A DNA stretch of 64,000 nucleotides from Musa acuminata AAA Group. Its lineage: Eukaryota; Streptophyta; Magnoliopsida; Zingiberales; Musaceae. The notes under the pieces were generated by a model, which had not been told where the DNA came from, ran no database searches, and saw only the letters and a program-made list of their open reading frames with translations. Below, in pieces: positions 6,217-6,574 of the stretch (position 1 is its first letter; every line of letters begins with the position of its first letter). The DNA lies in NCBI RefSeq assembly GCF_036884655.1, contig NC_088345.1, forward strand, positions 29,393,001-29,457,000, read 5' to 3'. The translations under genes were made by a program, and so were the position numbers.

Positions 6217-6574
6217 GAAGTCTCCGGCAGACTTCTAGTGGGGATCAGGATCCAATCAGCGTCTTAGTGTAACCTCGAGGGACTCGACCAATCACACTAA
6301 GCCTAAAAGGTAGACAACTCTTGTCGATCACAACTCCTTGTGATTCCCGTCCTGTTCGGCCTCCGAATCACCATGGCCTCGAGGGACTCGACCAACCATG
6401 ATGCTCGGTTAAGTCAACACCTTCGTTACAAGATGAGTCTGATTTGATGATATACCCTCGAGGGACTCGACCAAGCATATCATGCCCTCAGGTCACCGGT
6501 GACATCTCTATGTCGTAAGCAAGATAGCGAATCGCGATATAGGTGAGTCTCGAGGGACTCGACCAACTCAACCT
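6217..6574 (-). other. Array of RNA-type hairpins in the Copia B leader
   Basis: Four copies of the word CCTCGAGGGACTCGACCAA (first base T in copy 4) start at 6273, 6377, 6456 and 6548. Each is flanked by a different inverted repeat: CTTAGTGT/ACACTAAG (6263-6270, 6294-6301); CATGG/CCATG (6372-6376, 6396-6400, extendable past one mismatch); ATGATAT/ATATCAT (6447-6453, 6477-6483); AGGTGAG/CTCAACCT with one bulge (6541-6547, 6567-6574). The word can itself pair as TCGAG-GGA-CTCGA. Simple hairpins lie between: 6217-6235, 6313-6325, 6327-6344, 6501-6514, and a palindrome at 6492-6503. In the element's transcript this would be a densely folded leader. A packaging, dimerisation or translation role is inference. 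Confidence 0.7.

What the first reader, a model, noticed from the sequence alone, without database searches (positions are those of the whole stretch)
6217..6574. Four hairpins with one fixed loop word and four different, self-complementary stems
Seen directly: CCTCGAGGGACTCGACCAA occurs four times in about 300 bp. Each copy is enclosed by a flanking inverted repeat whose sequence differs from copy to copy but still pairs (8 bp perfect; 5 bp plus 2 past a mismatch; 7 bp perfect; 7 bp with one bulge). That is the pattern expected if structure is conserved and stem sequence is free. The fixed word can form an inner TCGAG-GGA-CTCGA stem. Further perfect hairpins fill the gaps (6217-6235, 6313-6325, 6327-6344, 6501-6514). 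All lie in the untranslated leader of Copia B, between PBS and gag. I infer a structured RNA acting in packaging, dimerisation or translation; I know of no described element of this form.
Basis: partly seen in the sequence, partly recalled or inferred. Interest (0 to 1): 0.78.

Follow-up and report, generated by a model that had tools for sequence, protein, structure and literature searches.

The report
Four-hairpin RNA array in banana retrotransposon
A very abundant banana jumping gene carries, just ahead of its first gene, four RNA hairpins with the same tip on four unrelated stems, probably a repeated handle by which its own shell protein picks up its RNA; the structure is well supported, the function is inferred.

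Summary
In the sense RNA (minus strand) of a banana Ty1/copia element, four copies of UUGGUCGAGUCCCUCGAGR sit 195-490 nt upstream of the gag AUG. All fold alike: copy-specific outer stem, UU/GR pairs, 5' GG bulge, UCGAG/CUCGA stem, UCC loop. Arms next to the word pair over 31 positions in total (maximum 16 in 20,000 random sets); arms swapped between copies pair over 0-3. Eight of 16 pairs show two-sided changes among the four copies (0 of 500 shuffles). All four fold better in sense than antisense. The exact word occurs 15,900 times in the 1.53-Gb genome; 35 of 41 copies examined keep four words in register. A plant Copia element about 48% identical has, at the same place, four hairpins with a different fixed tip, again with a 5' GG bulge, on two kinds of stem; two further leaders are only suggestive, others show nothing clear. 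No Rfam match; no description in the paper listings seen. Best explanation: a multivalent Gag/nucleocapsid-binding packaging signal; translation, export and dimerisation roles remain open. Copies within the family show no covariation. The genome search for diverged families did not complete.

The parts
6535..6580 (-). Hairpin H1 (core 6548-6566; outer stem with a one-base bulge; word variant ends GA)
   Evidence: fold -23.4 kcal/mol sense, -14.2 antisense
6447..6483 (-). Hairpin H2 (core 6456-6474; 9-bp outer stem)
   Evidence: fold -15.4 sense, -8.6 antisense
6363..6408 (-). Hairpin H3 (core 6377-6395; 8 contiguous outer pairs, then more after a bulge)
   Evidence: fold -24.6 sense, -15.2 antisense
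6263..6301 (-). Hairpin H4 (core 6273-6291; 10-bp outer stem)
   Evidence: fold -18.5 sense, -12.6 antisense
6217..6235 (-). Accessory hairpin GAAGUCU-GCCGG-AGACUUC
   Evidence: in the minimum-energy fold; not of the repeated type
6492..6503 (-). 12-nt palindrome GUCACCGGUGAC between H1 and H2, a possible dimerisation site
   Evidence: sequence scan; function inferred only
6079..7960 (-). Untranslated leader of Copia B from LTR end to gag, 1882 nt, 39 AUGs
   Evidence: LTR end at 7961 and gag AUG at 6078
7947..7959 (-). Primer binding site TGGTATCAGAGCC (initiator-Met tRNA type, recalled)
   Evidence: sequence one base after the 5' LTR
7961..9461 (-). 5' LTR of Copia B, 1501 bp; 5-bp target duplication ATATG at 9462-9466 and 2599-2603
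   Evidence: self-comparison and flanks
2604..3823 (-). 3' LTR, lacking its first 278 bp; 98.7% identical to the 5' LTR
4166..6078 (-). gag and the start of pol, broken into more than one frame (AUG at 6078; 551-aa ORF 4166-5821 with gag, one CCHC knuckle, integrase core)

Best explanation
The four hairpins are one repeated RNA module in the genomic transcript of a banana Ty1/copia retrotransposon. Each is a stiff, sequence-free stem that presents the same tip: two weak UU/GR pairs, an unpaired GG on the 5' side, a 5-bp stem and a UCC loop. Most likely the nucleocapsid part of the element's own Gag (basic stretch plus one CCHC knuckle) binds the exposed and wobble-paired guanosines, and four copies in about 300 nt gather several Gag molecules on one RNA, marking it for packaging into virus-like particles. 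Shown here by computation: the hairpins, their shared architecture, sense-strand bias, covariation among the four copies, persistence in genomic copies, and an analogous array in another Copia element.
For: Same architecture in all four copies with unrelated stems. Of 16 pairs, 8 have changes on both sides; covariation score 0.646 versus 0.271 in shuffles (0 of 500); slid pairings fall from 93.8% to 35-50% paired. Sense folds better than antisense for 4 of 4 hairpins in B and 4 of 4 in L001, which fits RNA rather than DNA. Position between PBS and gag, 195-490 nt before the AUG; retroviral packaging signals lie in such leaders (established knowledge). L001, a plant-type Copia contig in an assembly labelled Streptomyces, 48% identical over residues 30-550 of the gag-integrase query, has four hairpins about 160-580 nt before its gag AUG with core GG-CCAUC-CCUUC-GGUGG-A (one copy lacks a base): another word, again GG on the 5' side. 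Three of these are a tandem repeat; the fourth has another outer stem, which pairs over 9 positions with its own partner and 1 with theirs, theirs over 6 among themselves and 1 with it (chance of the fourth stem 0.0009). Gag of this family carries CFHCGKDGHWKRNC. HIV-1 NC binds first to a labile [UUUU]:[GGAG] G-U helix and prefers unpaired or weakly paired guanosines (PMC7395439, passages read), a close functional parallel to UU/GG plus GG bulge.
Against: No binding or packaging data. The GG bulge is shared by two clear elements only; L006 and L003 have other cores. L005 and L006 show no significant repeated apex. One 220-nt window of the array folds no better in sense than antisense (z -1.52 and -1.95). 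Copies within the banana family show no compensatory double change in 35 arrays, and at G-C pairs the pairing-preserving C-to-T is only slightly commoner than the breaking G-to-A (13 versus 8 column-variants). Ty1 Gag binds RNAs with low specificity, with some preference for its packaging region and 5' pseudoknot (PMC8396678, start of abstract and passages). Many structured leaders serve other ends.
Confidence: 0.5

Rival explanations
1. The array controls translation of gag: an internal ribosome entry or shunting structure that carries ribosomes past a long leader.
For: The leader is 1882 nt with 39 upstream AUGs, so plain scanning to gag is unlikely; the array lies close to the gag AUG. Long leaders with short upstream ORFs and secondary structure control translation in viruses, and plant pararetroviruses use shunting (PMC5902531, title and start of abstract in the listing).
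Against: A shunt is one long stem, as I recall, not a repeated small module; nothing explains why the same tip is needed four times. Splicing or separate transcripts could bypass the leader instead; BARE makes distinct RNA classes, one of them spliced (PMC3735527, passages).
Confidence: 0.18
2. The array is an RNA export or stability element bound by a host protein, like the repeated-loop constitutive transport elements of simple retroviruses.
For: Those elements also repeat one loop on a long helix (recalled); structured leaders recruit TREX in caulimoviruses (PMC12786077, passages).
Against: The word differs completely between B and L001, which is odd for a site read by one conserved host protein; a protein coded by the element itself fits better.
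Confidence: 0.14
3. The array is a dimerisation device: palindromic parts of the hairpins pair between two genomic RNAs.
For: The word contains the palindrome CCUCGAGG (CUCGAG in H1), and GUCACCGGUGAC lies between H1 and H2.
Against: In the folded hairpin the palindrome is buried in the inner stem and the UCC loop cannot pair with itself; L001's CCUUC loop is not palindromic either. The separate palindrome needs no array.
Confidence: 0.1
4. It is a by-product at the DNA level: replication or reverse-transcriptase snap-back makes inverted repeats, and copying between hairpins keeps the tips alike, without function.
For: Reverse transcriptase switches templates readily (established knowledge), and direct repeats in leaders do duplicate (three of the four L001 copies are a tandem repeat).
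Against: Fold energy favours the sense strand in 8 of 8 hairpins of the two clear elements, whereas cruciform DNA has no sense; G-U pairs sit in the stems; the array is kept at the same spacing in 35 of 41 copies, with the caveat that copies were chosen by the word.
Confidence: 0.08

Closest known systems
Retroviral packaging signals (Psi of HIV-1, MLV, MMTV)
   Same: Leader position between PBS and gag; several stem-loops; exposed or wobble-paired guanosines in HIV-1; CCHC knuckle in Gag
   Different: Retroviral stem-loops differ from one another (recalled); here one tip is repeated four times on unrelated stems. Host element is a plant Copia retrotransposon
Ty1 packaging region and 5' pseudoknot
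   Same: Ty1/copia superfamily; RNA signal near the 5' end
   Different: Proposed Ty1 region +230-580 and a 5' pseudoknot (passages); no repeated hairpin module in the passages seen; Ty1 Gag has no CCHC knuckle (recalled)
BARE (barley Copia) packaging and dimerisation signals
   Same: Plant Copia; BARE2 is said to conserve dimerisation and packaging signals (PMC3735527, passages)
   Different: The passages I read give no repeated hairpins; BARE sequence could not be compared here
Repeated coat-protein or Gag-binding hairpins of RNA viruses (alphavirus, RNA phages; recalled)
   Same: Works like: multivalent, same loop on variable stems
   Different: Different viruses, loops and proteins; no sequence relation tested
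Retroviral constitutive transport elements (recalled)
   Same: Same loop repeated on helical stems to bind one protein more than once
   Different: One long stem, read by a host export factor; not near the gag start of a plant Copia

Membership tests
Ty1/copia LTR retrotransposon (the host element) | Two LTRs, target duplication, tRNA primer site after the 5' LTR | tested here: met
   LTRs 98.7% identical, ATATG duplication, TGGTATCAGAGCC
Ty1/copia LTR retrotransposon (the host element) | Copia-type gag and integrase before reverse transcriptase | tested here: met
   PF14223, PF13976, PF22936, PF00665 in the 551-aa ORF; the reverse transcriptase is missing in this copy, but P0001, 99% identical over 95% of the query, has PF07727
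Retroelement packaging signal (Psi) | Structured RNA in the leader of the genomic transcript | tested here: met
   z -4.09, sense bias, covariation among copies; prediction only, not probed
Retroelement packaging signal (Psi) | Specific binding by Gag or NC | not testable with these tools
   needs purified protein and RNA
Retroelement packaging signal (Psi) | Needed for RNA entry into particles | not testable with these tools
   needs cells or tissue
Known RNA family (Rfam 15) | Match above gathering score | tested here: not met
   0 matches in the window; 19 sub-threshold matches in the leader, none over the array
Constitutive transport element | Binding to export receptor | not testable with these tools
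   no assay
Internal ribosome entry or shunt element | Cap-independent or shunted translation of gag | not testable with these tools
   39 upstream AUGs are only suggestive
Dimer initiation site | Palindrome exposed in a loop | tested here: not met
   the repeated hairpins expose UCC, not a palindrome; the separate palindrome at 6492-6503 was not tested for exposure

The most novel reading that the evidence does not exclude
Long-leader plant Copia families carry family-specific arrays of identical hairpin tips on freely evolving stems, each word read by that family's own Gag: a set of mutually exclusive packaging codes that keeps thousands of related elements in one genome from packaging one another.
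Probability: 0.25. Interest if true: 0.85.

Novelty: new variant of a known kind. Interest (0 to 1): 0.62.

Why it matters
How plant LTR retrotransposons choose their own RNA is, to my knowledge, hardly known, although they fill much of many crop genomes. A compact, repeated, clearly bounded RNA module next to gag gives a concrete candidate that can be tested with purified protein and short RNAs. The four-fold repeat with free stems also marks, without experiment, which bases matter (UU, GG, inner stem, UCC, GR). If different families use different words, it would explain how related elements stay separate, or how defective ones parasitise working ones.

Tried and rejected
Covariation across genomic copies of the family: one search listed the first 100 of 15,900 words, all on contig C1, which I grouped into 46 places; I fetched 40 of these and added the window. 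Of these 41, 35 have four recognisable words (up to 4 changes each) in register; the other 6 had only 1-3 and were dropped before the counts. Arms are the same apart from scattered variants; there is no double change; the direction of transitions is only weakly in favour. Non-CpG variation was lower in arms (0.018) than spacers (0.031), but the copies were chosen for holding an exact word, so the low variation in the core (UU 0.000, inner stem 0.007, loop 0.012, GG 0.021) is biased; the GR columns vary more (0.079). Variants found in 4 or more of 35 copies at two GR columns are A/G only, which keeps pairing with U; rarer changes there include T. One shared arm variant (H1, G to T) breaks a pair.

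Generality. The repeated-apex test (four leaders with a gag start I could place: B, L001, L005, L006) gives B 4, 0 of 200 shuffles; L001 4, 0 of 200; L005 2, 19 of 200; L006 1, 200 of 200; 51 control windows reach at most 3 (one window). For L001 the apex counted is an alternative hairpin in the same repeat (and 3, in the tandem copies, at the stricter setting), so this test shows little more than repetition there; one search is the better test. The seed scan gives B 158 cis hits against 2 swapped and L001 68 against 24; the other leaders are at or near their swapped counts. L006 (2 copies) and L003 (2 copies) show compensatory changes between repeats (P 0.011 or 0.17, and 0.003 or 0.006, depending on which copy gives the structure), but these repeats were picked after seeing them. 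L003 copy 2 folds better in antisense. L004 and the second element in L003 gave nothing clear. Other Copia elements in banana: Copia A in the window, and those at 20966 and 40250 of the 200-kb sample, have gag within about 300 nt of the PBS and no clear array (20966 had 11 cis against 6 swapped hits); the leader at 31627, whose gag I could not place, had 5 against 3. A diverged B-like leader at 38782 stops matching before the array.

Relatives elsewhere: viral contigs, none by word or protein (the gap limits would not fit the window's own spacing, put right). Phages: none. Plasmid records: 6 and 4 matches, of which two look like plant Copia and begin after gag. Rfam: nothing. Papers: the rows listed (lists are capped, for instance 20 of 72 and 12 of 179) show no title or abstract start on repeated hairpins in a plant Copia leader; the 13-letter inner word occurs in no held paper. 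Only open-access papers are held.

Full report
What was checked. They lie on the minus strand of a Copia element, so the RNA sense is the reverse complement. In that sense every copy folds the same way: a copy-specific outer stem, then UU paired with GG (GA in H1), an unpaired GG on the 5' side, a UCGAG/CUCGA stem and a UCC loop. The arms beside the word pair over 4 (bulge, then more), 9, 8 and 10 contiguous positions. Random arms of like composition never came near in 20,000 sets (maximum total 16 against 31), and arms taken from two different copies pair over at most 3 positions.

Covariation inside one element. Aligned without gaps, the four hairpins give 16 pairs. Six never vary (the inner stem and one UU pair), two vary on one side, eight have changes on both sides; 93.8% of cells pair (60 of 64). 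None of 500 shuffles reaches the paired share, the number of two-sided changes or the covariation score; 2 of 500 reach the number of further pair types. Sliding the partner by 1-3 columns drops pairing to 35-50%. The structure was read from these same sequences, so the slid control leans towards it, as the tool warns; the shuffles and the arm-swap controls do not depend on sliding.

RNA, not DNA. Folding the four hairpins as sense and as antisense gives -23.4/-14.2, -15.4/-8.6, -24.6/-15.2 and -18.5/-12.6 kcal/mol. The 441-nt region has z -4.09. In 220-nt windows at steps of 110, the five windows over the array have sense z -3.19, -5.59, -1.52, -3.05 and -3.24 and antisense z -1.45, -0.80, -1.95, -0.43 and -1.29, so in one of five the antisense is as good. 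The GC-rich first part of the leader is structured mostly on both strands, and more so in antisense.

The element. The host is banana: a TCP20-like gene in the window is 98% identical over 79% of the query to Musa acuminata AAA Group, and the window is a stretch of contig C19 of a 1.53-Gb assembly in 1060 contigs. Copia B spans 9461-2604, minus strand, with a 5-bp duplication ATATG, a 1501-bp 5' LTR, a 3' LTR lacking 278 bp, and an internal deletion from pol into the 3' LTR. Gag-Pol is broken in this copy. A database protein, P0001, is 99% identical over 95% of the query, in a cluster of 178 sequences. The leader has 1882 nt and 39 AUGs before gag. A published survey finds Maximus/SIRE and Angela to be the main Copia lineages of Musa (PMC4059648, passages); I did not assign Copia B to a lineage.

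Copy number. The exact word occurs 8163 times forward and 7737 times in reverse, 15,900 in all; the same letters read backwards, 0. Each array like that of the window holds three exact words, so roughly five thousand arrays is an inference, probably over three haplotypes. I fetched 40 of 46 places that I could group from the listed words on C1 (the list shows 100 of 15,900) and added the window; 35 of 41 have four recognisable words at the same spacing. Their arms are those of the window with a few variants. That shows persistence but not independent covariation: there is no double change, and single changes in pairs are mostly those of decay.

A second element. A scan of the bacterial genome collection returned eight loci that encode Copia relatives, identities 29-58%. 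They are most likely contaminants; I tested this only for L001, whose closest named relatives are plant proteins (Citrus, 62% over 99%). L001 has an open frame of 1311 codons from the AUG at 2336. Its leader holds four hairpins with one fixed tip, GG-CCAUC-CCUUC-GGUGG-A (one copy lacks a base, CCACC-CUUC-GGUGG), about 160-580 nt before the AUG. Three lie in a tandem repeat and the fourth, 234 nt on, has another outer stem. Outward from the fixed core the three pair over 6 positions with their own or each other's partner and over 1 with the fourth's; the fourth pairs over 9 with its own and 1 with theirs; a random stem of that composition does as well with chance 0.0009. Sense beats antisense in 4 of 4; z -3.33 for 481 nt. 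The word shares nothing evident with that of banana, but the GG on the 5' side of the inner stem recurs. A test that asks only how often one apical word recurs among hairpins 100-650 nt before gag gives 4 in B and 4 in L001 (0 of 200 shuffles each), 2 in L005 (19 of 200) and 1 in L006 (200 of 200); 51 control windows of the same elements reach at most 3. In L001 the apex it counts is an alternative hairpin of the same repeat, so one search is the better evidence there. L006 and L003 have two-copy repeats with compensatory changes, chosen after inspection, so they count as leads.

How it most likely works. The element's Gag has a basic stretch and one CCHC knuckle. HIV-1 NC prefers unpaired or weakly paired guanosines and first meets a labile G-U helix, [UUUU]:[GGAG] (PMC7395439, passages). 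The repeated tip here offers just that: UU/GG wobble pairs next to an unpaired GG, held up on a stem whose sequence does not matter. Four in a row would give avidity. This is inference from form, place and protein type. Translation control is the next best reading, because 39 upstream AUGs make scanning implausible; a host export factor is possible but fits poorly with words that differ wholly between elements; dimerisation fits poorly with a UCC loop, though a separate palindrome at 6492-6503 might serve. I put about 0.93 on a selected sense-RNA structure (judgement, not computed) and 0.5 on the packaging role.

Limits. I could not search the banana genome for diverged families: no genome search sent after one search was answered. 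So the claim that families use different words rests on two clear elements, from banana and from an unnamed plant. Novelty is judged against Rfam and capped listings from an open-access library; subscription papers, including earlier work on BARE signals, were not seen, and of the papers cited I read passages or abstract starts only.

Noticed in passing
window 7877-7892: 16-nt perfect palindrome ATTTTGACGTCAAAAT about 70 nt after the 5' LTR.
   Followed up: no
window 7370-7870: Very GC-rich leader stretch (220-nt windows with GC up to 0.80), structured mostly on both strands, with long ORFs on both strands that look spurious.
   Followed up: no
window 2604-9461: Copia B sits inside a repeat that recurs at 30757-31581, a nested insertion; its deletion removed reverse transcriptase and 278 bp of one LTR only, so it followed integration or arose in the last reverse transcription (inference).
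   Followed up: partly
window 49591-54203: Array of repeats about 72-80% alike.
   Followed up: no
window 19358-20157: Fragment of a related LTR, 77-83% identical to that of Copia B; no leader match beside it.
   Followed up: partly
L001-L008, L009, L010: Copia-type sequence in assemblies labelled as bacteria or bacterial plasmids (Streptomyces, Labilibacter, Solirubrobacter, Geminicoccus, Kitasatospora and others), most likely plant contamination; checked by protein search for L001 only.
   Followed up: partly
L066-L067, positions 79792-81736 of the 200-kb sample of C1: A Copia B leader copy whose array is duplicated and rearranged; the leader end next to gag occurs twice.
   Followed up: no
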